From: Druceiella hillmani
Lineage: Eukaryota > Arthropoda > Insecta > Lepidoptera > Hepialidae
Reading direction: 5' to 3'
Length of the DNA stretch: 64,000 nucleotides
Assembly (NCBI GenBank): GCA_039881145.1
Contig: JAYKKI010000039.1
Span: forward strand, 20,888,001 to 20,952,000
Part shown: positions 7,227 through 29,970 of the stretch, one piece after another
Numbering within the stretch: position 1 is the first letter of the stretch
How the letters are laid out: every line of letters begins with the position of its first letter
The notes under the pieces: generated by a model
Databases searched by the model: none
Seen by the model: the letters and a program-made list of their open reading frames with translations, nothing else
Told to the model about the DNA's origin: nothing
Translations under genes and position numbers: made by a program

Positions 7227-10200
7227 TTAAGACAGATCATCGACATTAAGGAATTGAATTAGAACAATAGAATAATTCATAATCAAACCCAGAAAATGGA
7301 GCAGCAATGAAGCTCTCAGGTTGAAAGACTTAAATATTTTGAACTGGCCCAGGTTGCCTGCTTCTATCATGTTTTTAATAAGCTTCATGTGACGTCGTAC
7401 AATGAATGCTGGAAAAAGCAAATGGTATAAGTTTATATTAAGGTATTGTTTTAATGAATTGAGGAAATAGTTTCTCCATTATGATGTTACGTTTACAATT
7501 AAACGTTAAATAAAAGGGAAACTGGTCTATATTCATAAAAAACTAGCAATGATAACCAGCTTTGTCCTGAATCAAAAACAGTACTTGTGAAAATATAGAG
7601 CTAATGACGCTTTTACGAAAGTATAAACTAAAATATTAGAAATTAAAAATAGTTAAATAATTCATGAAATTACATGCTATTTACAAAAAAATTATATTCT
7701 GAAGTATTGGTTTATGAACATAGAGATAGGTGCTGCATACACATAAATAGACATAAACCAATGTAATTATAATTTATGTTTTTGTATGCTAATACTTTAT
7801 TTGCTGTTACAAACTGGATGATTTCCTAAAGTTTAGTGAGCGATAAAAGCTGTGAGGATTGAAATACAGTTTGACAGATATAATGTAATACATATGTACT
7901 CATAAATGAGTGTGTCATCAAGTTTTAAAATGAGTTCATTATGTAGGAACAGTTCTTTGAGAGTATGATAAATTAACAACAGTCAACTTGTGAGTATCTT
8001 GGTCAGTTGAGAGTAGGAATAGATTTATGGCACACATCAGAGTTAGAGTGTATCTAACGTAATTAAGTTATGGCCTTTTTTTTATTTTGTAAATATAGAT
8101 AAGTATGAAGTAAATAATTTAGTCAGTTGTCGATATATAGCATCTCTGCAGAGAACATAGTCCGAGCAGAAAAGAGGACAGAGTTTTAAGATAAATTATG
8201 TAACCGTGCACATTTCAAATACTATTGTTGGCCATCTTGTAACTTGGTACTTTTGTCAGTCCAATTAAATTTAAAAGTGTAAGCCAATCAACATTAATTA
8301 AGGTGTTCAACATATTTTATTATATTGATTATACATATACTTCCTAATTATAAGGAAGAATTTGATTTTTGATCTTATGTTGTGTACCGGATAATTATTT
8401 TGTAAATTAATGAAAATGTATTTACATAATAATAATTCAATACTTTTGCAATAAAAGTATTAGGTTGGTACTAAAATATGTGTTAGAAAAAGAGAGAATG
8501 ATTACCAAAGAGGCACTGAGAGAATGACCATTCATGTCAATAACATGAGACGAAAAGTTATTTTTAACATAACTTTTTAATCCATGTTAAAGACACAAAT
8601 ATAATCAATACTGTAGGAAATGGTTTCAGTGTAATCGTGATGTAGCCAATACACAAGTCATTTCACACAAGGTTGGTACTAAAATATGTATTAGAAAAAG
8701 AGAGAATGATTACCGAAGTGGCACTGTGAGAATGACCATTGGTATCAATAACATGAGACGAAAAGATATTTTCAATGAAACTTTTTGAACCCATGTTAAA
8801 ATTATAAACATTATCAATGCTGTAGGAAATGGTTTCATGTGTAATCATGATGTACCCAATACACAAGTCATTGCACACATGGTTGGTACTAAAATATGTA
8901 TTAGAAAAAGAGAGAATGAGTACCAAAGAGGCACTGTGAGAATGACCATTCAATATCAAGAATATTAGATGTAGAGGTATTTTTAACAAAACTTTTTGAA
9001 TTAATGTTAAAGACACAAACATAATCAGTACTGTGCAAAATGGTTTCATGTGTAATCATGATGTAGTCAATATATGAGTCATTTCACACAAGGTTGGTAC
9101 TAAAATATATATTAGAAAAAGAGAGAATGATTACCAAAGAGGCACTGTGAGAATGACCATTCAATATTAAGAATATTAAATATAAAGGTATTTTTAAAAA
9201 AAACTTTTTGAATTAATGTTAAAAACACAAACATAATCAATACTGTTGGAAATGGTTTCACGTGTAATTATGACGTAGCCAATACACAAATAATTTTTCA
9301 AATTCACACAAAACCTAATATGTTAACCTGAGCATTAGACGTGGGTATTCTGGTCATATTATAGGAAAATATGCATTTGCTGCAAACTAAAATATAGATG
9401 ACAGTGGAAAATAAACTGGAGGAATTAAAATGTACTCATTTAATGGAAAATTTGGTTGTGGCAGTCTCTGAAAGACCAAATCTTAATTTATGAACATCGA
9501 CTGGATTTGACAACAAAATTTTTTCTACAAAATAGAAAAAATTCAAAACAAAGAATTTCAAATGACTTTTTCATTATTAATTATCCTACATGACATATAT
9601 GACAGAACACGATGTATAGAAACCAAAGCAATGGTGTAAATACTCTCAGAGTTGCTTTTGTAATAAAAACTACAGATCACAATCAAAACATAGGCTGTGT
9701 TTTTAGAAATTTCACAGTTTGGATTTAAAAATTGTATCATCATTTAGAATACCCTTTGGCAACAAATTTTAGAGTCAGTGATAAGTTATACCATTTTGCT
9801 CTTGTGTCTCATGTTTGTCTTATGTCTTAAAATGTATAAATTATATTACCTGTAATTTTTTCTTTTCATTTTGTGGTTTGATATTGCACCATAGATACTC
9901 ATCAACTTCTCCAGAAGTGTCTAATTGAAGTCTAATTGACTGTTCTGTGATATCGCTACTTTTGTTGCAGCTAATTGCTTTTAATCTTATATTTAATTTC
10001 CTTTTTTATAATTTATATTAAAATGTTTTCTGTGTCATCATTTTCTTTATTTGATATTTTACAATAAATAAATTTTTAAAATAAATATATTTTCAAATTT
10101 GATTAATAAAGTTTAAAAATGCTTCAAGCACTTATTCATTATTATTAATATAAATTCTAGATTTTAGTCAACATGTATAAGTTTCAAGATATATTTTAAA

Positions 10201-13200
10201 ATTTTTACATTTTTACAGCTTAGTAACTTCAATTTGTGTGATGGTTCCTAGATAAAACTGCTAACAATTACTGCTACACTGATATGCAAGGTATATAATC
10301 TTGCAAATAGAATCAATTGACATTTGAGTTGTCAGTTCATTCAATTAAAGACAGACATTTTCTTTTGCAAAAGAATAAGTTTGGGAGGAAAAGGCAAATA
10401 AACTGCCAAACTATTAGACGAACTAACTATTTATTATTAATATTAAGTCATTGGAAAATATGAAAAATGCCTTATGGGCGACATTCTACCATGAATCGTC
10501 AATGGAAGAATAACCTCACCATTTTTATTGTCCGCCTGGAGAAGAAAGTGTGATTGGCAGAAAGCAAAAGCCGAAAGGACATTAAATGAATACAAAAACA
10601 AAGCTGCTTTACCTGAAATTGTACTAGAGGCAATAAAACTCATCTATGCATCATTGAGTCACGAAAAATTACTTGAAAAGTGCTTAGGTGGATTTATACA
10701 AAACGTTAATGAATGCCTCAGTTCGAAAAGTTAGAAGATTGCACCCAAATATACTCTAGGTGGTCGGAGAACAGCAGGAGAAATAGCTACCAATGTTGTA
10801 GTATGTACTTTTAATCATGGGGCAGAGAGTATATTAAGAATAGAAAGATTAATTGCAATAACAATTGGATTTGAGGGGTACCACTATTGTCTCGGAGAAA
10901 ATTCCGAACCGGCTAAAACACACGCGAATCAATGCTACCAAACAACAAAAGAGGCCAGAATAGCTCGTCAACTCAAAAAAAAAACAAAAAGAATTAATTA
11001 CCAACAAGGAAGGCATACAATATGGAGCCGGAATGGGAGATTAAACATAAGTTACAAAACAAATTAAAAAATTCATAGTTTTTGCTTTAGCGGTGCGCAA
11101 CTTCGAGCAAAACGCATTTTTCTCAAAACTACTTTTTCTGACACGGTAGACATGATAACTCACACAGTTTTTAATATTCTTTGATGCAATTTTCTTTAAA
11201 ATATTCTAAATCGTTTTCTCTATAGTATATCGAGCCGGATTTTTGATATTTTGGTTTGAAAATTGTATAAAAATAATTAAAGTGTAAAATTTATGATTCC
11301 AGACGCATACTTTTTTTAAACTGCCATTAATTGCTAAATTTTTCGAAATTCGCAATTCCAGCTCGACATGCTATAACTACAATTTTATTTTACAAGAATT
11401 GTGCAGATCAATCAATATTTGGAGCAAGTTTTTTTTCTTAGTTCTGTGGATCACGTGGTTTTTTATATTGTAATTTTTTTAAAAATAAAGTGTAATAACA
11501 TTTTATATAAAGTTTTAATACAATAAACAAAGTTTACTATTCATTTTTATTAATTTTTATTTCTATTGTGTGTTAGGGCTTGCGTCCGTGCGTGCCTGCG
11601 TACGTGCGTGAGTGTGTGCGTGTGTGTGTGTGTATGTGTGTGTGTGTGTGTAGGTGTGTTTTTGTGTGTCTGTTTGTGTGTGTGTTTATATAAGTATACA
11701 TAAGTACATTACATATAATATAATAATAAAATTATACCGAATGCCCTCTTCATGGCACATGGACAATGATATTCTATCAAATATTAAATCAATGTTTATC
11801 ATTATAGCTTTGACAATTTTATACATACTTAGTATATTGTGGGTAAATTAAATGTTAAGAGATTGTTAGATTCCAGAAAATTTATTTTTGATTTTGCATA
11901 TAAAATGATGGTCAAAAGATCATTTCCTAATATTGGAAAGATGGAATATATGAATATGTCATGCATATAAATATAAATATTGATAACAATTATACAAATA
12001 AAATTATATTCTTTAATATATTATTATATTAGAGTACAATTCTTAACTCAACAAAGACGATTATTATAACACACAATCACCACAACATTCACATTGGAAT
12101 GAATTAACTACCCAACCCAGTAGAGCTAGAACACTCAGTTCGATTGCTAAGGGTGTTGGGCAATTGAAATCCTCGAATGTTAGAGGCTATTGTCAGATGC
12201 AAACGCTAAGAAACAATTGATCTAATTTCACACAATCACTAAAATGCTATTTAATGTAACTGTAATGCAGTTTCATGGAAATTCAGGTAAAAGATTCTTC
12301 TGGGTGACTCCGCCCCTTAGCCTCCGATCCTGTAAAATTATATCAAAATATATAACCCACGTTGCTCTCTTAGTTTTAAGTTAAGTTAATGACAGATTAT
12401 TGATGATTTAGATAATCATATATGACAATACATTTATTGATAATTTGTCAGTCTGTGCTTGGTCAGAATGCTATGTTACTCGTTTTCGACACAAAACTTT
12501 ACTCCATTATGATTTTGTATACATTACAACATCAATTTTCAAGTTATGTTATCAGATAAAATAATTATTGGATTCAAAAAAGGGAAGCTGGCCTCCGTCT
12601 GTGAAATATTTAGATACTAATGTGTAATTTAAAATATTATTAAGTCTGTAAGTATTAATTTTATATAAACGTAGTGCTGTCATTAAAAATAGCCATTTGT
12701 AAATTGGTAAATAAAAATTGTTCACTTACGTAATTCGTCATCGACTTGCATTGACATTAAATGAGATTTTGTTGTTTCTATCTGCATGTACATATTCTCA
12801 CACGTGAGACACATTGTCACCAACGATATAATGTCGTGGAACGGCCTTGACATACCAATGATGTAAAGTAACACATCTTCTCTCCGAAATATTGTCTTTA
12901 TTGATGAATATGGGATAAAAAGAATATTATTTGACATATGAGTGTACATTCAGTCAAAATTGATTTCATAACTTTGTGGGCAATATTTTTGGGCAGACAT
13001 TTATCAAGCCTACTGCAGCTTACTTACAAATATTTATTATAAGTAAGCTGCAGTAGACTACAATACTATATGATATACAATACTATATACTGATATACGA
13101 TACTATTATTAATTACAAAATTTTAGCCAAATACATTATGGAAATTAAAGTCTATCCCTTCATCATATATTAAAGGATTACTTAGTCTATTTGTTTTTAA

Positions 13201-14985
13201 CTTTTTATGATGAAATCCAATATTTTTTTTGATGGTCACAGGCTACAAAACTCTATAATGTTATTGACACGCATGTAGCAATAAGTCAAAAAATATTCAT
13301 CAGATGATGAAAAAACCACAAACCACCTAAATCAATTACTTTAATTTAGGTAATACCAATGTAATTAAATGATACATTAAACTATTGTAGCAATTAATTT
13401 TTTCCAAAAAAATTTCAAATCAAGATTAATCATAGTCACATTTTATAATGGTACTGGTGCAGAAGGTATAATTATTAATGTATGAAGTAGAGCAGTAGAA
13501 TAATCTTCTAAATTAAAAACAAAGGGAAAGTAAGAATGAAAAGGAATATATAAAAGACAATATACCACAATGATATGAACAGCAAAACAGGTGACGTGTC
13601 TCAACTAGACCCATCAGTAGCAGTCCATTCACCAAAAGCGAGTGTAATAATAAAAAAATGTTAAATAAAATTAATGTAACCCGAATTTACTCACTACTGG
13701 GTGTAAACCTCTTTGCTTGAGTTTGTCCTGGGTTTCTTTCATTCATGAAAAATTTTTAATATTTTTCAATAATTACACAAAATTGTTTTAAAATGCTTTA
13801 CTAATATCTCAAATTTTCCTCAAAGGTTTATTTTTTATTGTAGGGAGAATTCGCTAGTTTACAAAAAAAAGATTTTAGTCGTAAATCCTGTTTTCCGTAT
13901 GACCATTATTGCTTAATTTTTATGGCTTTGTAGTTTATTAAACTTTAATTGCAAGTTAGTCCATATGTGTTTGTAGTATATATGCGTTGATAATACTCAC
14001 GTTATACTTTAAATTTTGAAGAATTGTACATATGCCAAAGAGAATGCCAGAAAACATCAAAGTGAGTGACATGAATAACTGAAAAATAAAGTTAAAATTA
14101 GTTCATAACAATAATTGGTATGGTATTTTTAAAAGCGTTTAGTCAAAGTTAAAATTTAATTTTAAAGCTTTAAGTAAAACATTCAATACAAACCTGAAAT
14201 TCAAACATTTTGTTTAAATAGGGGCACAGTTCTTCCAAACGAATGTAGAATTGGGATAGATGATGAATGGAATTTTTATTTAGAGGCAATGCAAATGTAA
14301 AATGATTGTTTGAATTGGGATTATGTTGTGGACTCCCAAATATGGCATCGACAGATGTGACGATGTTTCTTTTAGTTTTGTGTTCAAAGAAAATATTCAA
14401 CATTTCCACACGTTTTGTTGTACTAAATAAAATCAAACAGAATAGTATTATTTCTAGATCAAAAATAATAACAGCAATAATATTGCACACAGTATAAATG
14501 ACTGAGCTTGGACCAAATTCTATACTTCCAGCTACTAGATCAATACTGGCATAGAGACTGTAATACGGCATGAGAAGGCCAATAACTATGAGGTTTCTAC
14601 ATTTATCCTTTCTCAACAAATTTCTTCTATGCTCTGATGTGAAAAGATAATCTACTTCTTGAATTTTCAGAATCAACCCTTCAAATACATTTCTGTCAAA
14701 AGTTATTTCAATCAAAAATAGATACAGGGAATAAATTATGTGAAGTGCCGCAAATACAATGTAGATGTAGGCATGAGTTGAAGTCAAATTGCTATTGGTA
14801 AATGTCAAAATGCCAACAATAACTGGTAGTACGATCAATGTTCCCATTATTGACAAACTGTATAATTTTTGACACCACAATGGAAACCTGGTGGGAACTC
14901 GGTTAACAGTTCTTCTGCACACACCAAACACTCGCTGATACACTAAAATAGGCCAAAGTGTATCTTCAATAAATTCTCTACTCAT
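7227..14985 (-). CDS. Gustatory receptor, complete four-exon gene
   Basis: GR proteins are seven-helix ligand-gated cation channels of chemosensory neurons, with the N-terminus inside the cell. Exons on the minus strand are: 1, 14985-14194 (264 codons, ATG to F-E-F-Q, donor GTTTGT); 2, 14078-14001 (26 codons); 3, 12895-12730 (acceptor inferred from frame; donor GTAAGT); 4, 7408-7227 (acceptor TTTTTCCAG, stop TAA). Joined, they give 1218 bp, 405 residues, no stop. Predicted helices in exon 1 lie near residues 42-63, 72-93, 131-152 and 162-188; exons 2, 3 and 4 each carry one more. Exon 4 holds the C-terminal signature as N-Y-S-I-V-L-I-Q-F, with N for the usual T, followed by a 7-residue tail. 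The 5.3-kb last intron contains a tandem array and a Mutator-like relic. The first 28 codons and the promoter were copied by the inverted duplication to 24333-24417. This is the only GR here with all exons and no visible lesion. The exon 3 start is the least certain boundary. Confidence 0.8.
7409..8199. other. Last intron of the complete GR gene, 3' part
   Basis: No coding or repeat structure recognised. The polypyrimidine tract and acceptor for exon 4 (minus strand) sit at its left end. Confidence 0.4.
8200..8462 (+). mobile_element. Relic of the repeat family also at 26290-26520
   Basis: The sequence beginning around 8210, with GGCCATCTTGTAACTTGGTA, aligns with 26310-26520 (GGCCATCTTGTAACTTGATA). 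It runs directly into the tandem array at 8463, whose units align with the next part of the same element (26520-26720). No intact ORF. Confidence 0.55.
8463..9300 (+). repeat. Tandem array of four 208-211 bp units derived from a transposon fragment
   Basis: Units begin with GGTTGGTACTAAAATATGTG-like sequence at 8463, 8671, 8881 and 9092. Each unit aligns with 26500-26720: the unit end around ATGGTTTCA...GATGTAGCCAATACACAAGTCA matches 26670-26710, where the plus strand still encodes an H-D-E-A-D-T motif. The array is thus an amplified, no longer coding piece of that element. Units differ from each other by scattered substitutions and small indels. ORFs on the minus strand here are by-products of the repetition. 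Confidence 0.85.
9301..10380. other. Intronic, nothing recognised
   Basis: Within the 5.3-kb last intron of the complete GR gene. A 61-codon minus-strand ORF at 9558-9743 shows no family features. Confidence 0.4.
10381..11044 (+). mobile_element. Mutator-like transposase-derived gene relic
   Basis: Read with frame changes, the plus strand carries in order landmarks of a family common in arthropod genomes and often annotated as Mutator-like or uncharacterised: L-G-G-K-G-K at about 10381, a W-Q-K-A-K-A motif near 10551, K-A-A-L-P-E-I-V, then L-L-E-K-C-L-G-G-F near 10669, then N-V-N-E-C, then I-A-T-N-V-V-V-C-T-F near 10786, and a terminal Y-G-A-G-M-G-D followed by TAA at 11042-11044. Only 10528-10734 is one open frame; a stop follows S-S-K-S and frameshifts occur before it and near 10978, where there is an A-run. 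It sits inside the last intron of the minus-strand GR, in the opposite orientation. Family assignment is from memory of the motif string. Confidence 0.6.
11570..11695. repeat. GT-rich microsatellite
   Basis: Degenerate (GT)n and (GTGC)n tract. It produces the spurious plus-strand ORF at 11654-11851. Confidence 0.9.
11696..12729. other. Intronic; GC-richer block of unknown origin at about 12060-12340
   Basis: Between exons 3 and 4 of the complete GR gene. The block around 12060-12340 is less AT-rich than its surroundings (for example GGGTGTTGGGCAATTGAAAT) and looks like an old dispersed repeat, but I cannot classify it. Confidence 0.35.
13010..13056. repeat. Perfect 17-bp-arm hairpin in GR intron
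   Basis: 13010-13026 is the exact reverse complement of 13040-13056, with a 13-nt loop. It lies just upstream (gene sense) of exon 3 of the complete GR gene, in intron 2. Confidence 0.9.
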
Positions 14986-15071
14986 ATTGATTCTTGTAAA
15001 ATATTTATGTTCTAACTAAATTCCAGCACAACTTTTTTATTGAGCGGTCGAGAAACAAGTGACGCTTTGCT

Positions 15072-15081
15072 CTTTAAATAT
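15072..15081 (-). promoter_or_regulatory. Candidate TATA-like element of the complete GR gene
   Basis: Reads ATATTTAAAG on the minus strand, about 90 bp upstream of the ATG. The surrounding block (TTTAAAGAGCAAA, then GCGTCA) is shared with the upstream of the inverted stub (ACATTTAAAGAGC near 24240), and more weakly with the relic at 54.5 kb. In the stub the first T of the TATTTAAA is C. Positional and comparative evidence only. Confidence 0.35.
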
Positions 15082-17396
15082 CTTTTGAATTAACATCCAT
15101 TGTTATTTTATCACCATCCATTGTGGAATCTATGGAGTGCTTAATAAGCTTAGTGCTTAATAACAAAACATGACATCGATTGTGTTTACTTTGGAAATGT
15201 ACCAATCCTTCGATCTAGAACTTTTTATATTTTAGTCACAAAAATATTTGTAATTTCATTTATGCTCTTGACAGTGGGAAAATAATGAAAATTACCTAAT
15301 GTAAATATTTTAATACTAAATGGCTTTTTAATCTTGTGACGTACATCATGTTATAAATTATCGTTATTTTTTGGCATAAATAGGAACAAATTACACTCTT
15401 CATTTTTTTTTGTTAGTCAACCACAAAAAATAATAAAAAAAGAAAGGAAATTATTACAAAATTAAAACAACACAAAACAGCATCACCCTAAACAAAATCC
15501 ACCACTACATTTTCAAAGTTTTTTATTCAGGCAAATTTTAATATGGCATTTCTAGCACAATGTGTAGCTTTTCCATTAACATGCAGGTATCTTGCAGCAT
15601 TAGTGTGTCAGTCGCCAGGCAGGAAAGTGCTCAAATGTCTTGTCTTTCATTACAAGGGGAAACCATTTTCATTTTAATCACGGCATGTGCAAAGAATTTT
15701 AAATTCTACAATTTTAGGTATTTCTGTATTTTTTTTAATTTTCTGACTCTTCCATATAGCCAGTTGACCAATTGCCATTATCTGATCTTCCCTACAGCCA
15801 GTTGGCCAATATTAAGCAGATGGTAAAAATTTCACAAATATCAATTTTTTGTTTTCACATGCTGATCATAGTTATTCTCTATCTGGGACAATCCACCTTT
15901 ATAAACTTTTTTTATCTTCCCACTCTGACTCGTTCACTAGAACTTAAATTAAGTCTAGGTTATGCTTCTATTCCAAATATATTTCAAAACCCGACTTAAA
16001 CACTCGATGGCACCAAAGGGTAAGCAGTGTATATCACCACTTATGCCATTTGTTTGGTGCTGCAGTAGAATGTTGCAAGTCTTGGTAACAGACTTTTGTT
16101 TGTCTATGAACAGCACTTCGCTTTCAAGCATACCTTGGTACTTCTTTTCTTAGTATTTCCTAATTTGGCTAAGAACTATTCCATATCTCATTTGAACAAG
16201 ACCTCCTTCAGCATGATCTGAAATAAAGTCTGAAAATATCGCAACAAAACAAATTTTGAACCAGTTTCTCACACAAAGCATCAAGGTTGCTACCTAATGC
16301 GTTTCTGTTGTATTGGTATATCAGCTTTTTTGTTCACTCTTCAATGATTAAAACAAATTATCACTGCTAGTTTATGTTCCAGCACAGGAGGCCACCATAT
16401 AAATTGTGACACATAATGCATTGAATGCAATGTACGATTAAGTTCTGTTTACACCCTCCCAATTAAAATTCTTGCATAGGTAAAGTATATACCACAACAT
16501 GTCGACAGCCATATGTGTGGTACTACTTCTCAATTTGCCATATTGTACAAATTTTTTCTGTTGCGCTTCTGGAATTTGTAATATTTTTTATCTGAAGAAA
16601 AGTTTATTGAAGATGATAATATTAAGACGATTCAAAAGAAACAAATGTTTCACAATCAACTTAAATTACCAATTATTCACCATAACTACATGTTTTAAAC
16701 TACAGTTCAGGGATATACATTCTCATGTTAAACTATGTGAAAAAATATTCATGTGCCATTGCCCATTATTCAAATACTCCAATATCTTTTAAAGTAAGGC
16801 AATATATCAAATCCATAGGAATAAACAGAATTTAGTAATATGTAGAAAAGTTTAAAGCAAGAACAAAATCAACAAGCATATCGCACGCGCTCTTCTGAAT
16901 ATTGAACTTTTAGATAATTATTTGCATTTTCATTGCAATCCAAACAATTGATATCTTACGAACTTTGAGTTCAGCAAGGAAATGAGAACTCAAAATAACT
17001 GAAATGGCTGACTAATTAAAAGAACTGCCCACCAAGATGCAGTGTCATGTAATGTGTTAGCTACTAGTATTATTGATTATATTGTTACAAGACAGCAATA
17101 TTAATTAAAATAATTTTTTTTACCATTTACAATTTCGAATCTGTAATGAATGTTTCAAGTTGTGCACAGAGCAGTATTAGAAGAACATTGAAGTAACAAT
17201 TCATTATTTGATTACACATTAAAATTGATCAAAGTGGTGTTTCAATTCGTGCTCAATTTATAATGATGATTATCTAGTATCTCGACACCACTATTGCTGA
17301 TGTAGATTTTTTAATTAGATGTTTTAGAATGATATTTTAAATTTAATTTTTAGAATGATGATTGTTTATCTGAACTGCGATGTGAGGAACGATTAA

Positions 17397-17445
17397 GATG
17401 ATCATTCGCTTGTGTTGTCTGAAACAACACAAGCAAATGATCATC
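17397..17445. repeat. 22-bp-arm hairpin within the inverted duplication
   Basis: 17397-17418 pairs with 17424-17445 with one mismatch and a 5-nt loop. The equivalent site in the right arm (about 21265-21315) shows a worn version, so the hairpin predates the large duplication. Confidence 0.85.
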
Positions 17446-19007
17446 TTCAAGATGATGATCCAATGTCATAACAGTACTATCCAGACTGGATTATGATACT
17501 TTGTTGAATATCTCAAGTAAATAAATTGTTTTTAGTTTCAGTTTACTCTATTAGTGTCCATAAGCCTTCCTCTAAATTGATATCAACTAGAACTGGTCTC
17601 GTAGAACTGGTCTAGTCTGCTTGAGTTCATGTTTATCTCTATGCCTTGTTTTGGGCTAGCTTTTTCCCATTACATGAGGTCGGTTTTCATAATCATGTGG
17701 CTCTAGGTACCTTGCAGGTACATGATCTACTATCTTCATATCTCTCTAGACATTTATCACCAAATGATTTAAAGACTTCCTCTCCGGCTAATGAAAAGAT
17801 TATTAGCCATAGAAAGGCACTCTTCATAATATAATCTTTTTTTTTTATTAATGAACCATATTAGTTTAGTAATCAGATTTCCTCATGGTACAATGAAACT
17901 ATTTTGTATAGATTCCAGTGGCAGAACTAGCCAAAAATTTCATCAAGTACGTAACTAATTCAAAGCATTTTCCGAGAATAAAAATAGCAAAAATAACTGA
18001 ATTGCCCTTTTACATCAAACTGATTATATTTTTAATTGGATTTTCAAGCAAATTGAAATTGCAAAAAAATCTGAAATAAATCTTATGTAATTGGTAAAAA
18101 TTGACCCTAGTAGATCTAAGATGAGGTTGAGTGCAGCTGTCAAATGTAAATAATGCACCATTTTATTGCTCTGAAACATGTAAACTATACAAAACTGACT
18201 AGTTCTAGATTTGTTACATTGTTTATTTTTGCCATATAACCGTTTGTTTAGCTTATACTGTTGGAAATGCCGTTTTATCTAATTTAAAGTGATATACAAT
18301 GTTTTTTTGGTTTACGAAATATGCAAATAAACAAAACGAGTAATTGTGAAACTTTCTAAATTATTGCATTTGGTGGTTTTCTTAGTTATATACATAGCAT
18401 TGCATTTAGTTACAATAGCCTCTTTTGATTGTTAAGTTCAACTGTCATATTTTTTGGACTAACTTGAGATGATTCTCCAATAGGGGTAGATAAATTGTAA
18501 TTTTCATTAGATTTCTTTTTATATTTACATTTATTTTTTTGTCATTTTTATAGTAATACAAAAATTGTATCTTATTAAACTTTTTCATTTGTAAGCATTT
18601 TTTCTTATAAAAACGCGGCACTATTTTACATATTTAATTTTTTTTGAAACTCATAAATACATAAGTATGGCACAAATATTTCAACAATGTTATATCTACA
18701 TTTCTTCTCTGTCTAAGTAAAAAATTTCTTTATAGTCAAATAGCAAATTTCGGAGTTAAGAATTATTTAATGGAAATGACGTAAAACCTGGCCTTTTGTG
18801 AACTCACATGCTCAAAGGATTAATTGAGGTCTCTATATTGTGTTTACTTACTTGAACATTTCATGTACATGGGTCTAAAGTGTAGAAATTATAACAGTGC
18901 AGCAGACAGGGACAAATAGTATCCCGAAAAGGAGACAGATGGAATTTTTTTAAATGGGATATGATGCCTCCTTCCATCACAATATTTAGCAGTTGCAAAA
19001 AATGTAG

Positions 19008-19283
19008 CTTTTCAAATGTATATTTTGTTACAGAGTGTGAATACTGTAGGTTTAATAGATGTCATTTAGCAGGATCTTAAAGAGGATTCTTTTGAATTCA
19101 AGCTGAAAGAAAAAAGATATAAAAAATGCCCTGTTCCCAGTTTACCAGGTTTTAAATAAAGATCTAACTTCTCAGCAATTATGCTGTTTATAGCGTCTTC
19201 TAAAAACAAATACATTCTTTATACGGTACAGTCTATGAGACATTATTTATATTGAAGTGTGAGCTGTTGTTGTCAAGAGTAAA
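19008..19283. other. Spacer between the arms of the inverted duplication
   Basis: About 276 bp not shared by the arms. No ORF or transposon terminus recognised. Confidence 0.6.
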
Positions 19284-22261
19284 TCTACATTTTTTGTAGC
19301 TACTAAATATTATATTGGGGAGAGGCATGATATCCCCTTTCAATAAATTCCATATGTCTCCTTTTCAGGATTCAGTATACGAAGGGCAAAAATGAATAAC
19401 TTCTATAATTCCTTCTAATGTCTATTTGTCTCTCTGTCCCTGTCTGTTGCACCATTGTAGTTTCTACAGTTTAGACCCGTATAAATTAAATGTTCAAGTA
19501 AATAAACACTTCATATAGAGACCTTCATTAATCCTTTGAACATTTGAGGTCACACACGATCAAACCGCATCTGTCAGCTTTTATTTCACTTCCGTTAAAT
19601 AGTGTTTAACTCCGAAATTTGCTATTTGATTATAAAGAAATTTTTTACTTAGACAGAGAAGAAATGTAGATACAAAATAGTTAAGTATTTATGAGTTTAA
19701 AAAAAATTTAAATACATAAAAAAGTTCCTCGTTTTTGTAAAAAAATGCTTATAAATGAAAAAGTATTCATAAGATATAATTTTTTGTATTACTATAAAAA
19801 TGACAAAAAACTAAATGTAAATATAAAAAAAAGAATCAAATGAAAACTCTAACTTATCTATCCCTATTGGAGAATCATCTCAAATTAGTACAAAAAATTA
19901 AGCAGTTGAACGCGACAATCAAAAGAGGCTATTCTAACTAAATGCAATGCTTTGTATGTAACTAATAAAACCACCAAATGCAATAATTTAGAAATAGTGG
20001 AAAAAATGAAAGTCTCGCAATTACTCATTTTGTTTATTTGCATATGTCATAAACCAAAAAAAACATTATATATCGCTTTAAATTAGGTAAATTATATGTA
20101 TATTACAAATTGTATATGTATATTACAATAAACAATGTAACAAATCTAGAACTAGTTGATTTTGTATGGTTTACGTGTTTCAGAGCAATAAAATGGTGCA
20201 TTATTTACATTTGATAGCAGCACTCAACCTCACCTTAGATCTACTGTGGTCAGTTGTTATCAATTACGTAATTTTTATTTCATATTTTTTACAATTTCAA
20301 TTTGTTTGAAAGCCAATATAAACATATAATTGGTTTGATAAAATATGGCAATACAGTTATTTTTGCTATTTTCATTGCACGAGTGGGTTACAGTATAATT
20401 GATTCGTTTATAGACTTCACTTTTAAATTTTTAACACTTTCTAGAAAAATGCATTGAATTAGTTACATGCGTGCTGAAATTTTTGGATAGTCTACCACTG
20501 GAATGTATGCAAGATAATTTTGTTGTGTGCGATTCGTATCAATTCACTTATTTTGCTGTTTACATTATCTTAAGGAAATCTGTTTACTAATTTAATATGG
20601 TTCATTCACGAAAAGACAAGATGATTACATTATGAAGAATGCCTTTCCATGCTAATAAAAAGAGCAGAAGAGGAAGTCTTTAAACCATTTGGTTGATGAA
20701 TGTCCAGAGAGACATGAAAATAGTTGACTGTGTTTCTGCAAGGTACCTGGTGCCGCATGATTAGGAAAACTGACCTCATATAATGGGAAAAAGATAGGTC
20801 GAAAAAAAGGCAAACAGATGAACATGAACTCAGAAAGACCAACAGATGTATGACAGATACCGCACAAGTATTTAAAGAATGAACAATAGAGTGAGAATTT
20901 CCAAGAATGGAATGTAATAAAACACCTGAATACCTTATTCATAGGTCAAGTTTGTTTTGGTACTCTATGTTGCAGGCGAGACTAAATCCCAACATCACAT
21001 AAAGAAAGTACATATTCCATATTGGAGGGAAATAGCGTGCACAAACGGGAACATTTTATTATACAACATGACAAGAGATAATTTTTGAAATAAAGGTAAA
21101 TATTGAATATAAAGGTCTACATATTGAGAAGTTCTAGTTGATATAAATTTAGACGAAGGCTTATGGACCCTAGTGGTGTAAACTGATACTAAAAACAATT
21201 TATTCACTTGAGACATTCAACAAAGCTACATAGTATACTGTTATGACATTGGATCATCATCTTAAAGATGATCATTTGCTTATGTTGTTTTCGACAATAC
21301 CATTGAATGATCATCTTAATCGTTCCTCACATCATAGTTCAGTTAAACAATCATCATTATAAAAATCAAATATCATTATAAAAACATCTGATTAAAAAAT
21401 CGACATCAGCAATAGGGTTATTGAGATATTAGATAATTATCATCATAAATTGAGCACAAAATGAAATGCCACTTTGACCCATTCTAATGTGTAATCAAAT
21501 AATGAATTGTTATTTCAATGTTCTTCTAATACTGCTCTGTACACAACTCGAAACATTCATTACAGAATGTGAAGCTGTTAGAGATATATCTAAATTGATA
21601 AAAAAATTATGTTAATTAATATCACTGTCTTGTAACTATATTATCAATTACAATAGTATCTAACATATTGCACGACACTGCACCTTGGTGGGCAGTTCTT
21701 TAGAGTAGTCAGCCATTTCAGTCATTTTGAGTTTTCATTTCCTTGCTGAACTCAATATACATAAGATATCAATTGTTTGGATTGCAATGAAAATGTAAAG
21801 AAATCTTAATTACCTAAAAGTTCCATATCTCCATTATATTTCAGTGGAGCGCGTGCAATATACTCATTGATTTTGTTTTTTTTTAAAACTTTCCACATAT
21901 TACTGAATTCTGTTTATTCCTAAGGATTTGATTTATTGTTTTAGGTTAAAAGACATTGAATTATTTGAATAACAGGTTATGACATGTGAACATTTTGTAC
22001 TTTAAGTCACTTCACTTGGGTAAATAAATTTAGTGCTAATAAATAATATTAAAAACACAGCCGTAGAAAGTACAAATCTATAAAAGGGGTAATTTTTTCA
22101 CATTTATACATTAATTTTGTATGAAGTTAATATTCAATATAGCATCAAATTTTCATTCAAAACCCATTTAAATAAATTCTTGTTGAGATATTAATGAGGT
22201 AAAGCAGCACCTACTTTATTTGGCTTATGAGTAAACCTTTGGATGGGCAAAACACTAAATG

Positions 22262-22503
22262 AACATATTCGGGTGGGCATTTTATAAAAATTCTTTATCT
22301 TTACAAATTGCCCACCTGATTTTATAAAAATTCTTTATCTTTACAAATTGCCACCTGCCACACGTCGTCATACAAAGAAACCTAGGTCATGGTAAAGAAT
22401 TTAAATAAAGTAGAAATAATACTACATCGTGCAGTTTCATTTCATTTTGAATAAATTTAAATTATGATCAATTTCCACAAAATTAGCGCCAAATATATTC
22501 AAT
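22262..22503 (+). repeat. Dispersed repeat related to the 60.7-kb MITE, with a local 40-bp duplication
   Basis: Shares with 60800-60962 the string around ACAAATTGCC...AAACCTA...AAATAAAGTNGAAATAATA, continuing to GCCAAATATATTCAAT. Inside it, the stretch ATTTTATAAAAATTCTTTAT through the following CACCTG occurs twice in tandem (about 22279-22352). It belongs to an insertion present only in the right arm of the inverted duplication. Confidence 0.6.
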
Positions 22504-24332
22504 ATGTACAAAATAGTTTATTTCATTGAGCAATTCATTTGTATTGAAAATATTAACAGAAGTTATCTTTTACTTAAGAACTTTATTTTCATTCCTGGCT
22601 CCCAAATGGATAAAAGCAATTCACAGCCCTATTTCATTCAATTTCCCTTACTAAAAAGTTCAGAGTCCAAAGAAATTTTTTTTCTTTAGCCTTTAATATG
22701 ATTATTTACTACTTTATATAAAAAACTTGAGATTACAAAAAGACATTTTATTTTGCTAAAAAACCAATAACAAACATGAAAATGTAAAGCTCTGAGCTGA
22801 AGTTTGAAATATGTGGTGGATACTTAGTAATTTAAGTTGATTGTGAAACATTCGTTTCTTTTGAATCGTCTTAATATTACCATCTTCAATTAACTTCTAT
22901 TCAAATGAAAAAACTAATACAAATTCCAGAAGTTCAACAGAAAGAGTTTCTACGATGTGACAAATTAAGAAGTGGTTACACACATATGGCTGTCGTCATG
23001 TTGTGGTGTATACCTTACCTATACAAGAATTTTAATGGGGTGGGTGTAAACAGAACTTAATCCTACATTGCATTCAATGCATTATGTGTCACAATTTATA
23101 TGGTGGCCTACTGTGAATAGATCTTAGCCACATAATTGTAAATCCAAGGACACAGCTGTTTACATAAAATTAGGAAATTCTAAAAAAAATGCCGAGGTAT
23201 ACCTAAAAGCAAAGTGCTGTCGGTAGACAAACAAAAGTCTGTTTCCAAAATTTGCAACATTCTACTGCGGCAACAAACAAATGCCATAAGTGGTGCTACA
23301 CACTGCTTACACTTTGGTTCCATCGAGTGTTTACGTCCGGTTTTGAAATATATTTGGAATCGAAGCATAGAAAAATTTATAAAAGTGGATTGCCCCAAAT
23401 AGAGAATATACTATAATCAGCATATGGCGAAGATGGATTAATTAAATTAGTTCCTGGAAAATATAAAATTAAAAGGAAAACAAAATATTGATATTTGTGA
23501 AATTTTTACCACCTGCTTAATATTGCCATCGACAATTGGTCAACTGGCTATACTATCAACTGGCCAAAAAATAAAAAAAACAGAAATACCGAAAGTTTAC
23601 GGATTTCAAATTGAAACTTGAAATTCTTTGCACAAACAACCAAATAAAAATGAAAATAATTTCCCCTCTTAATGAAAGACAAGATATTTGAGCACTTTCC
23701 TCCCTGGCGACTGATACACCAATACTGCAGGATACCTATGTTAATGGAAAAGCTACACATGGTGCTACAAATGCCACATGAAAATTTTGCATGAATAAAG
23801 AGAACATTCACTTTGAAAATGTAATGAGGGATGGATTTTGTTAAGGTGATGCTGTTTTGTGTTGGTTTAATTTTCTGTTAACTTCCTTTGTTTTGTATTA
23901 TTTTCTGTCATGTACAAACAAAAAAAAATTAAGAGTGTAATTTGTCCCTATTTATATTAAAAAGTAATGATAATTTATGATGTGATATATGGCACAAGAT
24001 AAAAAAAATAATTTATTATTAAAAAATTTACATTAGATATTTTTCATTATTTTCCCACTGTCAAGAGCACAAATGAAATTACAAATATTTTTGTGACTAA
24101 AATATAAAAATTCTAGATCGAAGAATTGATAACTTTCCCTGGTAAACATAATTGATATCAAGTTTTGTTGCCTATTAAGCCGTCTATAGATTTTACGAGG
24201 TGATAAAATAATAATGGATAATGGATTTCAAAAGACATTTAAAGAGCAAAACGTCAAACGTTACAAAACAACGCTCAATAAAAGACTCGTGCTGTAATTT
24301 AGTTAGAACGTAAATATTTTACAAGAATCAAT

Positions 24333-24417
24333 ATGAGTAGAGAATCAATTGAAGATACACTTTGGCCTATTTTAGTGCAGCAACGAGTGTTTGGTGTATG
24401 CAGAAAAACTGTTAACC
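24333..24417 (+). pseudogene. Truncated 5' stub of the complete GR gene
   Basis: Starts with ATG and encodes the same N-terminus as the gene at 7227-14985 for 28 codons (M-S-R-E-S-I-E-D-T-L-W-P-I-L), differing at a few residues (S for F at 5, Q for Y at 16, K for R at 25). Homology to GR then stops at the edge of the inverted duplication and the frame runs into unrelated sequence. The upstream region is the duplicated GR promoter, in head-to-head orientation to the original. It cannot encode a receptor. Confidence 0.85.
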
Positions 24418-25748
24418 AATTTGAAGCATTGATCGATTGGTGCCGAATGCTACAACACGTACGTTTCGCCCGAACGTGCGGCGTGCACTAAAATGAAGTT
24501 AGCCACAAATCCGGCAGCTATCAAGGAACTCGACTTCACAGGATTTACCTGCATAAAAATATTTACGAAAATGTGTTTTGTCGGTCTCACAGACCAACGC
24601 GCGAGTATAGGAAGGTTAAGATCGGATACGCTAATTGAGCTGCCATTTTAAAAGAAATATAAATGGCAATAATGGAGCCGTATGTACATAGAGGATACTT
24701 ATAGATATCAATGATTATACCAGCTTTGGCAATTCTACAAAGAAAAGATTCACAATAGTTAATTCTTTACTAAGTTTTGTTATTACCTATACGGAATGTA
24801 GCCTTGAACGTTACATAAAACAATTGTAAAAATCTGTTTTCATACAAAATCGTAATTGATAATTATACATCGGTTTTGGAACATACGATAAATTAAAGGT
24901 ATACTGAATTTTTATTTTATTTTGGCCACAATTCTTTTGTTTTACCAATAAAATATTGTAACCTACCTAACCTATTGTACCCTAAAAATATTGTAAAACA
25001 TAAATTTTTTTCTCTTAAACATGTGTTTAGTAATATTATAATAGAACATTCTACCTGACATGATATATTTACTACTACAATGACATGATATATTTTATAA
25101 TTAGTTTAATTAAAAATAAATGCAGTGATTATTCTATAATTAGCATAACAAATAACAGCTGAATGTATTTGGGAAAAACAAAGTTCCAGCTACAAATTTG
25201 GTAATTCATCTGACAAATCATGAACAGTGTAAGCCATTTTTTCCACTATTATTATTTCACAAACCACGAAAATAGCCAAAAAGTTAAGTAAAGAGCCTAA
25301 AGAGCCTTACAACCTCTTTACTATACTATTAAATTAAAATAATATTCAAATTAATTTAACGGTAATCATTTTAAAAAAATTGAGGCTTAATTATTAAGCT
25401 ATAAGTATTTTTTCATGTTGTTATTATACCTGGTAATATTTAATTGTGTAATACTTCATTCATAAAAATTGTATTAACCGAATGTTTTGTATGCACGTCT
25501 TATTTTTTGAACAGATTGCGATCCCCTTTAATAATAAACCGACCCCCAGGCTGAGTAAGAACGGTGTAAACTATAGGTGTTTGAGCATATTATATTAGTT
25601 TATTACCTGTGTTTATAAACAACAATCAAACGCCACATTTTTAATGTATTGTGTCATTTTTAAATTTACATTATTATTCAATGCAATTCGATTTTATGGA
25701 GTTTAGTGTTTGTTTTTGATAATTTACATTGTTTTGATAACTGTTATA
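24418..25748. other. Outside the inverted duplication; no gene recognised
   Basis: 24420-24620 is richer in CpG and GC than its surroundings (for example CGTACGTTTCGCCCGAACGT), suggesting a younger inserted sequence, but no terminus or coding motif was identified. The rest is AT-rich and featureless. Confidence 0.4.
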
Positions 25749-26289: not shown

Positions 26290-26874
26290 AGCACATTTCA
26301 AACACTTTTGTCGGCCATCTTGTAACTTGATACTTTCGTCAGTTCAACTAAATCGGAGCTAATTACAATTTTCAACATATTTTATTTTATATTACTATAT
26401 TTATTTTCTATTCATAAAAGAGATATATGTTTTTATTTTTATGTTGTGAATTAGATAAATATGTTGTTAATTAATAATATAATAAGTGAGTAATGATTCA
26501 ATATTTTTTTAGAAAAATGAAACAAAAAATGGAATAATTGTTAAAGATGCACTGGGAAAATAAATATTTAATATCAATAAGAAAAGATGAAAAAGTATTA
26601 TTAACAAGAGTTGATTAATTTTTTTTTAACACAGTTAAAGAAAGCAACAACCATTAATACTATAGACAATGGTTTCAAATGTATTCATGATGAAGCCGAT
26701 ACACAAGTCGCTTGTCACCTATACAAAATTTACTTGGAATATAATGTGCTAATCCTAGCATCAAACACCGCTACCCTGTTTCATATTATTGTAAAATTTG
26801 CAAGTACTGCAAATAAAAATGTAGATGGCATAAGATTCCTTTCACTATTTGAGACAGTGTTTCCCAACCGGTAG
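26290..26874 (+). mobile_element. Transposon-related relic with an E-A-D-T motif
   Basis: 26611-26874 encodes a short peptide with G-F-K-C-I-H-D-E-A-D-T-Q-V followed by V-L-I-L-A-S-N-T-A. This resembles the E-E-A-D-T-R ... V-x-T-x-D-T-D-V stretch seen in many uncharacterised repetitive insect proteins. 26290-26720 is the single-copy counterpart of the relic and tandem array at 8200-9300. No complete ORF. Confidence 0.45.
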
Positions 26875-27220: not shown

Positions 27221-28395
27221 TACAGGTTGTCCAGTGGCAGATTTCAAAGTTTGAACAAACATAGTTTCTGAAGGCGCGGGAGGCGTCGTTAGAAGCGCAA
27301 GTGGTGCGGATGTTTTAGTAGCCATGGAACAGTGGAGTGGAGAGCACTGCGCTTTTGCCGTCGAGGCGTACATTTTGAGTGGATTTTCACTGTCTGTAGC
27401 ACGCCGTCGATTTAATAATCGATACAGTATTCGTCGATTACGTGATGGACCATCGATCAACCTCATTCAGTCATGGGTAGCAAGGTTCAAAGCTACAGGA
27501 TCAACATTAAATAGGCCCAGGCCAGGACCTACACCATTGGTAGCCACGGATGAAAATGTCGAGCATGTTATGGTTTCTGTCGTTGAAAATCCCCGTTTAT
27601 CACTGCATACACGTTCATCGATATTGGGAATTCTGAAATCAATTATAAAAGTAATAATACAGAAAAAGCTCAAGTTCCATCCATATAAAATTCAAACTGT
27701 TCAAGATTTACACGATTCTGACTTTGAATTAAGAAAAACTTACACGGAGGTGATGTTGTTGAGATTTCGTACTGCTACCCGGATGGGCAACATATTCTTT
27801 AGTGACGAAGCTCACTTCCACATTGGATGTCCACAACCCAAGACAAATGCATCAAGAGCCTTTATATAAGTCTGAAGTAACAGTCTGGTGTGCCATGGCT
27901 GCATCTGCAATCATAGGGTCTTATTTCTTTGAAAATCAACGTGGCCAAACTGTAACTGTGAATTCGGAGCTCACACTGCTAATGTGTCCATGAATGCAGT
28001 GCGGCAGTTATTTCCAGAAAAAAACATATCCCGAAATGGTGGCTGGTACTGTACCGTGGCCACCTAGGTCACCCGATTTAAGCCCATGTGACTTTTTCTT
28101 ATGGGGATACTTAAAATCCGTTGTTTACAAAACAAATCCGAGCACTGTGACACAACTTAAAGAAAATATTCAAGCCGAAGTCAGTAGGATACCCCAGTGG
28201 CTCTGCAAACGCGTTTTTGAAAACATGCATGCTAGACTCGAAGAGTATGTCAGACTCGATGGCCGCCATTTGGAAAACGTGGTTTTTAAAAAATGAAATC
28301 CCCATTTGTTGTTATAAAGTTAAAATAAACCTACTTTGTATTAGAGGTGTAGTTTTTTTTTTACAATTTTTCAAACATTGAAATCTGCCACTGTA
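27221..28395 (+). mobile_element. Tc1/mariner-superfamily transposon, internally deleted
   Basis: Terminal inverted repeats: CAGTGGCAGATTTCAAAGTT near 27232 against the reverse complement of the right end at about 28366-28393, with TA at the outer edges (27221-27222 and 28394-28395). The left end has about 8 extra bases, so the right end is probably clipped. The transposase starts at 27324 (M-E-Q-W-S-G-E-H) with the helix-turn-helix region, then F-H-P-Y-K-I-Q, the first catalytic Asp in F-S-D-E-A-H-F-H (about 27805), a frameshift, T-V-W-C-A-M, and the third acidic motif R-S-P-D-L-S-P-C-D-F-F-L-W-G (about 28065). The stretch expected to hold the second catalytic Asp (Q-Q-D-G-A-T-A) is deleted: T-V-N-S-E at about 27967 joins directly to H-T-A-N-V-S. 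The element ends with G-R-H-L-E-N-V-V-F-K-K and TGA at 28294-28296. Not autonomous. Confidence 0.85.
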
Positions 28396-28701: not shown

Positions 28702-29970
28702 ATGTACTGTGTATTATATCTTTATTATACACAGTATATATATCTTTATTTTTATTCTGGTCTTCATAAGGACATAATAATCAATGTGTATTTTTTCCAA
28801 AATCTTATTAACATTATGCATTTTAACTGCGAAATGTTTTTATTTTGTACACTCAGTTATAACATAAAAAAACGCATAGAGCTTGTTAATTCATTTTTTA
28901 ACCGCATTAAATTTTTTGATCACACTTCACAATATGATTTGAATTATCAATTTTCTATTTCACCTCTTAAAAAGAAAACAATTTTCAAGTTGTCAGATTT
29001 CTTTGTAAATTGATGGATTTATGCCAGGTTCTGAATAAAACCTTTAAGTTTCAAGTAAGACATTGGATACTTTTGAAAGCATTTTTATTGTTTTTATATT
29101 TATTTATTATATGTAATTAAACATTTGTATTCTTTTCAGATATTTATACATTTGTTGATAGTTTTTACTAAAACAATGATATGTATACAACAAATCCTCG
29201 AGTGCATAAAATATAAAGTAAGTGAAAATGTTTTAAAAATTATACAAATAATTCAGGAAGGCCATTTAACTTTATTTCTAGGAATAGTTTAAGATTACAA
29301 TGTTAAAGAAATACGGTGTGATTCTAGGTTTATGGGGGTTTAGAAATGTATGAAATATTGTGGTCATTACACTTCTTGGTGGTGTTGATTGCTGTATGCG
29401 CTGTAGGCGAGAAGCTGTACTTGCAGGTGGAAAAAACTAAATCACATTTTGTGGAAATCATGACTGACAAAAGATATCGTAAGTTCTTAAGACAATTATC
29501 ATGTATTTAAATAATAACATAAATAATTTGGTTTTATAATAATGTGCTTATAATAAAAATATAATATAATTATTAAATGCATCTGAACACACATTTGGTC
29601 AAATTAATCCACCATCAATTATCTGATTTTTTCTCAAAATTTTACATTGTCTGCTAATTAAGTAAACAGTTAATCGATAACAATGTTCGAAAATAAAGTA
29701 ATTTATAGTAATTTAAAATAAGTTAATCTTTAATGCAAAAATTTATTTGTAATTAAATAACCACAAGCACGTATTTATAAATATTTCATAATTTTCACAG
29801 CTGCTGAAACCAGAAGGCAGCTAGAGTTAGCACGGGATCTCCTGCAGTGGAGCAAGATGGGTCAATTGATTGTGTTCCACATGTATGATATACGCATATC
29901 ACTGTTACTCAGTTTTCTAGGACTTACGACATGCATTATTGTTACTATTGAGTTTATAAATTTTGCATAA
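28702..29970 (+). pseudogene. Gustatory receptor pseudogene, 5'-truncated with frameshift
   Basis: Exon 1 survives only from about the fourth helix onward (C-E-M-F-L-F-C, I-K-K-R-I-E-L-V-N-S-F-F, matching residues 180-200 of the complete GR). It is frameshifted by one base near 29010: after L-S-D-F-F-V-N the frame hits TGA, while the next frame gives L-M-D-L-C-Q-V-L-N-K-T-F-K-F-Q to the donor at 29054. Exons 2 (29140-29217), 3 (29328-29478) and 4 (29801-29970) are open with good splice sites and phases 0, 0, 1. Exon 3 contains V-E-K-T-K-S-H-F-V-E-I-M, close to the complete gene's E-T-T-K-S-H-L-M-S-M, so the two are near relatives. Exon 4 ends with L-L-L-S-F-L-G and I-I-V-T-I-E-F, where E replaces the signature Q. 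The lost N-terminus and frameshift make it non-functional. Confidence 0.8.

What the first reader, a model, noticed from the sequence alone, without database searches (positions are those of the whole stretch)
14901..24417. Large head-to-head inverted duplication cut inside a gustatory-receptor coding exon
Two arms of 4.1 and 5.1 kb, separated by about 276 bp, are reverse-complement homologues. Their outer edge lies exactly after codon 28 of the intact GR, leaving a promoter plus an 85-bp coding stub facing away on the other strand. Arms have diverged and the right arm gained about 1 kb of insertions, so it is not a recent assembly palindrome. The stub could give antisense-capable or hairpin transcripts of the GR 5' region. 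Long inverted repeats near a chemoreceptor promoter are a possible route to small-RNA control, but that part is speculation.
Basis: partly seen in the sequence, partly recalled or inferred. Interest (0 to 1): 0.75.

Follow-up and report, generated by a model that had tools for sequence, protein, structure and literature searches.

The report
Taste-receptor gene pair, one copy broken
Two insect taste-receptor genes sit back to back on near-mirror-image DNA; the same pair occurs elsewhere in this genome with both first coding exons intact, so the strange half-gene here looks like a later breakage beside a jumping gene, an ordinary event in a very large receptor family.

Summary
The structure is real. 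Inverted arms 14902-19007 and 19284-24416, with a 276-bp spacer, are 84.8% identical over 3776 aligned columns. The left arm starts in exon 1 of an intact 405-aa gustatory receptor, minus strand (Pfam 7tm_7, E 1.1e-9). The right arm ends after codon 28 of a second copy.

The whole-genome search changes the reading. Two places on contig C24 carry both arms head to head, and there the right-hand receptor exon covers residues 1-264 without a stop. So this is a head-to-head receptor pair found at three loci, broken in this copy.

The break lies about 10 bp from a 193-bp end of a piggyBac transposon with 5 private differences in 193 (2.6%), against about 8.6% per arm, so the transposon came after the arms diverged. 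One deletion joining codon 28 to the transposon is the simplest account (inferred).

The small-RNA idea has no support: both start regions point outward, same sense, and no RNA data were available. The setting is a large receptor expansion (145 exon-1 matches scored, a lower bound). Interest is low.

The parts
7227..14985 (-). Intact gustatory receptor gene (GR_A), predicted exons 14985-14194, 14078-14001, 12895-12730, 7408-7227; 405 aa
   Evidence: Splice model built by hand with matching phases; Pfam 7tm_7 PF08395 E 1.1e-9, 38.5 bits against cut-off 26.6, residues 12-398
14902..19007 (-). Left inverted arm: first 28 codons of GR_A plus 4.0 kb upstream
   Evidence: pieces matched at 92-97% in two places on C24 (which lack window 15299-16084) and at 82-96% at C64:1963436-1965743
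19008..19283 (.). 276-bp spacer at the centre of the inverted repeat
   Evidence: No homology between its halves above shuffles; its left part up to 19111 is also present in the C24 copy L042, where the fetched piece ends
19284..24416 (+). Right inverted arm: 5' flank and first 28 codons of the second receptor
   Evidence: outer 1251 bp matched over its whole length at two places on C24, 91% and 90%
24333..24488 (+). Stub of the second receptor: 28 homologous codons, ORF of 52 aa ending in foreign sequence
   Evidence: no Pfam match
24412..24426 (.). Junction: TTAA at 24412-24415, then about 10 nt before the transposon fragment
   Evidence: 6.4% of window positions have a TTAA starting 2-6 nt before them
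24427..24619 (.). Terminal 193 bp of a piggyBac-type DNA transposon (copy L031 is 2413 bp long, TTAA at both ends)
   Evidence: 34 other places at 95-99%, 40 of 824 candidates scored; transposase domain PF13843 E 2.2e-39 in copy L027; copies and ends
24679..25300 (.). Part of an older dispersed repeat right of the transposon fragment
   Evidence: Pieces at 72-85% at 5 other places

Best explanation
This is a head-to-head (divergently oriented) pair of gustatory receptor genes with homologous 5' flanks, which appear as a long inverted repeat. The paired unit is old and also occurs at two places on contig C24 (shown by positions and partial sequence). In this copy the left receptor is intact (shown by sequence, splice model untested). 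The right receptor has been reduced to 28 codons after the unit existed, beside a young piggyBac end (shown), most simply by one deletion running from codon 28 into a transposon inserted downstream (inferred). The pair belongs to a very large receptor family changing by gene birth and death. The stub is probably a pseudogene relic with no regulatory role (inferred). The confidence is for the core: an old pair, broken later.
For: The two best outside matches of the right arm lie beside left-arm copies. C24 unit 1: left arm 2349923-2351746, right arm 2356794-2358037. C24 unit 2: left arm 4567845-4565669, right arm 4562614-4561376. Exon 1 (residues 1-264, no stops) is found for both genes of both C24 units, head to head with 8.0 and 6.4 kb between starts. 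Locus L040 crosses the middle of unit 1: left-arm sequence, then right-arm sequence (window 19750-20230) at 94.6%. The sequence about 10 bp past the break is the end of a piggyBac element found at 34 other places; against eight other copies it has 5 private differences in 193, P = 0.0006 under the arms' per-branch divergence of 0.086. The rest of the right gene was not found in the window or in the 130 kb of flank searched, which holds 5 kb of N.
Against: The break lies at a TTAA, the piggyBac target, which would suit direct insertion into the exon; but no receptor sequence was found after the far TTAA at 24617-24620. Only exon 1 was tested in the C24 right-hand genes, from positions without the letters. 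A third close left-arm copy (C64:1963436-1965743) has no right arm or divergent receptor listed beside it, though both lists are capped. The C24 left arms lack window 15299-16084, and unit 1 lacks the centre 18634-19749. The age comparison uses 193 bp. Whether the two arms are sister copies is unresolved: over about 313 bp the left arm is closer to four single copies on C24 and C64 (0.90-0.91) than to the right arm (0.858), while a rooted tree joins the left arm's family and the right arm with support of only 59.
Confidence: 0.85

Rival explanations
1. Variant of the best explanation: piggyBac inserted directly at the TTAA in codons 27-28 of the right-hand receptor, and the rest of the gene and most of the element were lost afterwards.
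For: The break lies at TTAA 24412-24415, and a second TTAA at 24617-24620 ends the fragment. The TTAA is shared by both arms and the seven other family copies aligned, but not by the two outgroup paralogues.
Against: Needs at least two deletions, one starting exactly at the far TTAA. TTAA is frequent here: 6.4% of positions have one as close.
Confidence: 0.25
2. One reading: one inverted duplication whose outer breakpoint fell inside the exon, creating the stub at the time of duplication.
For: Homology stops abruptly after codon 28.
Against: Two other loci with the unit have the complete exon at the same place; the sequence at the break is much younger than the arms.
Confidence: 0.05
3. The locus makes a hairpin RNA or antisense stub RNA that silences receptors through small RNAs.
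For: A long inverted repeat with 24 exact runs of 21 nt or more between the arms.
Against: Both receptor start regions point outward and are same-sense; most of the arms is upstream non-coding DNA; only 84 coding nt are shared; none of the 20 frames of 60 aa or more in the arms is kept open in both; no Rfam match at the gathering threshold in the window, and one match at E 0.8, below its cut-off, in 14000-25000.
Confidence: 0.03
4. Assembly artefact: an allele or collapsed copy joined in inverted orientation.
For: Palindromes are error-prone in assemblies (general knowledge).
Against: 84.8% identity with 52 indel blocks; the window has no N; the same arrangement is assembled at two places on C24.
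Confidence: 0.02
5. On the origin of the pair (compatible with the best explanation): it arose by bringing two already separate receptor copies together rather than by a local inverted duplication.
For: Over about 313 bp next to the start codon the left arm is closer to four single copies on C24 and C64 (0.90-0.91) than to the right arm (0.858).
Against: The homologous flank extends over 4 kb on both sides up to a short spacer, as expected of a local inverted duplication; tree support either way is weak.
Confidence: 0.3

Closest known systems
Inverted duplication of sugar-receptor GR clusters in red palm weevil (PMC8308034; passages read)
   Same: Insect GR genes duplicated in inverted orientation
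   Different: There two clusters lie about 24 Mb apart with >95% identity in exons and introns and under 50% between genes; here one head-to-head pair shares 4 kb of 5' flank at 85%
GR family expansion in Spodoptera with transposons near the clusters (PMC9339325; parts of the abstract and passages read)
   Same: Birth-and-death expansion of GR genes in transposon-rich surroundings
   Different: There SINEs are enriched near clusters; here a piggyBac end marks one broken gene
Duplications that capture a gene's 5' end and promoter in Drosophila yakuba (PMC5460883; passages read)
   Same: A gene start left next to foreign sequence, which could in principle yield a new transcript
   Different: Those are tandem duplication products; here the 5' end is a relic of a gene whose exon 1 is complete elsewhere; transcription unknown
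Hairpin RNA (hpRNA) loci of Drosophila (PMC10317233, PMC10292708; passages read)
   Same: Long inverted repeat with similarity to a gene
   Different: The passages describe hpRNA transcripts yielding Dcr-2-dependent siRNAs; here the start regions point out of the repeat and no RNA evidence exists

Membership tests
Insect gustatory receptor (7tm_7, PF08395) | Match to the family profile over most of its length | tested here: met
   E 1.1e-9, 38.5 bits against 26.6, profile 3-366 of 370
Insect gustatory receptor (7tm_7, PF08395) | C-terminal TYhhhhhQF-like motif in the last exon (motif recalled) | tested here: inconclusive
   Last exon has NYSIVLIQF: NY in place of TY
Insect gustatory receptor (7tm_7, PF08395) | Taste ligand response and expression in gustatory neurons | not testable with these tools
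   No expression or ligand data
Drosophila-type hairpin RNA (hpRNA) locus | Long inverted repeat | tested here: met
Drosophila-type hairpin RNA (hpRNA) locus | One primary transcript through both arms | not testable with these tools
   No RNA-seq; the anatomy (outward start regions) speaks against it
Drosophila-type hairpin RNA (hpRNA) locus | Dicer-2-dependent siRNAs | not testable with these tools
   No small-RNA data
piggyBac transposon (24427-24619) | TTAA-flanked ends and DDE_Tnp_1_7 transposase in longer copies of the same family | tested here: met
   Eight copies fetched, about 2.4 kb (L033 with an internal gap); ends printed for seven of eight, with TTAA and similar terminal repeats; PF13843 E 2.2e-39 in one copy. 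The window holds one end only, so it is a fragment
Local inverted (head-to-head) gene duplication | Both arms are each other's closest relatives | tested here: inconclusive
   Identity favours the left arm with other copies; the tree favours left with right, support 59

The most novel reading that the evidence does not exclude
Head-to-head receptor pairs sharing a long mirror-image 5' region are a recurrent module that spreads as a unit and keeps two receptors under one regulatory region. Three loci carry this unit, a second older inverted pair lies about 60-74 kb to the left, and three other divergent exon-1 pairs lie 8-11 kb apart on C24 and C64.
Probability: 0.08. Interest if true: 0.5.

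Novelty: new member of a known kind. Interest (0 to 1): 0.22.

Why it matters
It shows how an odd-looking half gene in one window is resolved once sibling copies are seen: an old paired unit, copied, then broken in one place beside a young transposon. The wider setting, one receptor subfamily with at least 145 scored exon-1 matches in a 2.59-Gb genome (species not identified; insect by its receptor family), would suit a study of how receptor families grow and decay, but the mechanism seen here is ordinary.

Tried and rejected
Nothing relevant came from protein searches of public sequences or of solved structures, or from Rfam at the gathering threshold. Single-exon Pfam scans missed the receptor; the spliced model was needed.

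Considered and dropped: (1) that the 53.8-54.5 kb receptor relic is the missing remainder of the stub gene; it overlaps stub codons 19-28, so it is a separate copy. (2) That the receptor continues beyond 24417 in diverged form; not above shuffles. (3) That the arms hide a conserved protein: of 20 frames of 60 aa or more, 15 meet stops in the other arm, and the 5 without stops differ in length by a number not divisible by three or are largely absent there; of ten frames scanned (nine from the arms, one the stub frame) one gave a Pfam match, far below its cut-off. (4) That even divergence shows neutrality: identity along the arms is uneven (chi2 78.0, 0 of 2000 shuffles as high), weaker away from gaps (98 of 2000); conserved blocks are not excluded. 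(5) That head-to-head order is favoured: of 18 neighbouring exon-1 pairs under 20 kb, 7 are divergent, 8 same-strand and 3 convergent, no clear bias; short exon-1 distances favour divergent pairs anyway because gene bodies lie outside. (6) My own earlier reading that K2P 0.172 dates a local inversion was withdrawn.
Full report
OBSERVATION. Self-comparison of the window shows inverted blocks pairing 14901-18914 with 24417-19435. A global alignment gives arms 14902-19007 and 19284-24416 with a 276-bp spacer. Over 3776 gap-free columns identity is 84.8% (327 transitions, 248 transversions; K2P 0.172). There are 31 blocks (1356 bp) present only in the right arm and 21 blocks (330 bp) present only in the left. 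Both ends are sharp. The structure is far beyond chance (E-values of 0 for the three largest blocks).

THE INTACT GENE. On the minus strand, exons 14985-14194, 14078-14001, 12895-12730 and 7408-7227 join in phase into a 405-aa protein. The spliced protein matches Pfam 7tm_7 over residues 12-398, E 1.1e-9, 38.5 bits against a cut-off of 26.6. The splice model is mine and untested by RNA. The last intron is about 5.3 kb and holds a four-copy 211-bp tandem repeat at 8462-9296.

THE STUB. ATG at 24333, plus strand. 84 nt (28 codons) are homologous to GR_A with 77 identical; five codons differ, three of them in the amino acid. The frame runs 52 residues to a stop at 24489. Its identity is not unusual: 13% of 516 non-coding 84-column windows reach it. 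A transcript from the stub's start region would run rightwards and be the same sense as GR_A mRNA, and GR_A's runs leftwards, so neither crosses the inverted repeat. This follows directly from the anatomy and is the main argument against the antisense or hairpin reading.

WHAT LIES AT THE BREAK. A genome-wide search with 24418-25300 found 45 matches (40 of 824 candidates scored). The 193-bp part 24427-24619 occurs at 34 other places at 95-99%. In eight other copies fetched the homology runs on for about 2.4 kb (L033 with an internal gap); copy L031 is 2413 bp with TTAA at both ends and similar terminal repeats. Copy L027 (the same place as L031) encodes a DDE_Tnp_1_7 (piggyBac) transposase domain, E 2.2e-39. 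The window thus has one end of such an element. Against the eight copies it has 5 private differences in 193 columns; the other copies have 0-5. Under the arms' per-branch divergence of 0.086 five or fewer would be expected with P = 0.0006. The element therefore came after the arms had diverged. The receptor homology stops at TTAACC (TTAA 24412-24415), but a TTAA this near occurs at 6.4% of positions. No receptor sequence was found after the far TTAA.

SIBLING COPIES. The left-arm query 14986-17600 gave 101 matches (40 of 589 candidates scored) on C24, C64, C36, C65, C107 and C39. Several are closer to the left arm than the window's right arm is: C24:2350231 97%, C24:4565669 96%, C64:1963436 92%, against 76-87% for the right arm. 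The right-arm query 23167-24417 (42 matches, 40 of 740 candidates scored) found its two best outside matches at C24:2356794-2358037 (91%) and C24:4561376-4562614 (90%), beside the two C24 left-arm copies. Locus L040 crosses the middle of the first unit, passing from left-arm sequence to window 19750-20230 at 94.6%, without 18634-19749. L042 keeps the centre up to window 19111, where the fetched piece ends. Both C24 left arms lack window 15299-16084. The third close left-arm copy, on C64, has no right arm or divergent receptor listed beside it in these capped lists.

RECEPTOR EXONS IN THE SIBLINGS. The GR_A exon-1 search scored 145 matches of 4098 candidates (the window's own included), all at 61% identity or more; 133 of 145 have no stop, a figure biased to good copies because the best candidates are scored. 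In C24 unit 1 GR(-) 2349131-2349922 faces away from GR(+) 2357953-2358744. In C24 unit 2 GR(-) 4560669-4561460 faces away from GR(+) 4567846-4568637. These four cover residues 1-264 without stops. Only exon 1, and only by position, was examined for the right-hand genes.

ORDER OF EVENTS. Arms diverged (about 15%), then the unit was copied between C39 and C24 (left arms 92-98%, right arms 90-95% by region), then the transposon arrived and the right gene was truncated in the window copy. The simplest last step is one deletion from codon 28 into the transposon (inferred). A direct insertion into the exon followed by further loss is the main rival.

POLARITY OF INDELS. Sequence matching window 22445-22772 is present at 81% in the C24 left arm L042, between positions matching 16730 and 16729, and sequence matching 22321-23115 is present in L043. 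At least that much of the right arm's extra DNA was therefore lost by the window's left arm, not gained by the right.

ARE THE ARMS SISTERS? Unresolved. Over about 313 bp next to the start codon, left against right is 0.858 and left against single copies L043-L046 is 0.90-0.91. A tree rooted with two older paralogues puts right with left at support 59. The tree used 11 sequences of about 320 bp.

CONTEXT. The window lies near the end of a 20.98-Mb contig in a 2.586-Gb, 181-contig assembly. Other receptor pieces in the window lie at about 2.5, 4.8-5.3, 28.8-30.0, 38.0 (weak), 43.9-45.5, 53.8-54.5, 56.0 (weak) and 62.1-63.4 kb, several with stops. About 60-74 kb to the left a second, older head-to-head inverted pair exists: 70.6% over 1338 bp around exon 1 and 67% over 879 bp upstream. 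One of its genes has an open exon 1, and the other lacks the ATG and has a stop. So an inverted pair with one decayed member occurs twice in the stretch read.

LITERATURE. Inverted duplication of GR clusters is described in red palm weevil (PMC8308034, passages). GR expansion near transposons is described in Spodoptera (PMC9339325, parts of the abstract and passages). Captured 5' ends producing new transcripts are described in Drosophila yakuba (PMC5460883, passages). The hpRNA passages read (PMC10317233, PMC10292708) identify those loci by their transcripts and Dcr-2-dependent siRNAs, which could not be tested here. Passages of PMC2667405 and PMC6380325 added nothing used here. Six paper searches were made; I make no claim that this locus is absent from print.

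VERDICT. The cut in the exon is secondary and the small-RNA role is unsupported. This is a new member of a known kind, interest 0.22.

Noticed in passing
window 17395-17447 (and 21265-21317 in the right arm): A 25-bp hairpin with a very short loop (minus strand of 17380-17490: -43.8 kcal/mol, z -7.0), weaker in the right arm (z -2.8 and -2.9); no Rfam family reached its gathering score. Its similarity between arms may be simple inheritance.
   Followed up: partly
window 27232-28393: Element with 27-bp inverted ends, 93% complementary, and a helix-turn-helix DUF4817 match in its ORF; looks mariner-like (label recalled).
   Followed up: partly
window 28786-29961: Receptor relic on the plus strand with pieces matching GR_A residues 163-400 and a frame change near 29005; no 5' part found.
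   Followed up: partly
L020 and L019, about 60-74 kb left of the window start: A second, older head-to-head inverted receptor pair, one member decayed.
   Followed up: partly
G000 contigs C24, C64, C36, C4, C39, C65, C107, C1, C69: Very large expansion of one receptor subfamily: 145 exon-1 matches scored of 4098 candidates, 77 of them on C24 and 35 on C64.
   Followed up: partly
L010 and L013, about 15.5 kb right of the window end: A 5-kb run of N near the contig end: a scaffold gap or a withheld stretch.
   Followed up: no
window 8462-9296: Four-copy tandem repeat with a 211-bp unit inside the last intron of GR_A; similar sequence at 26291-26830.
   Followed up: no
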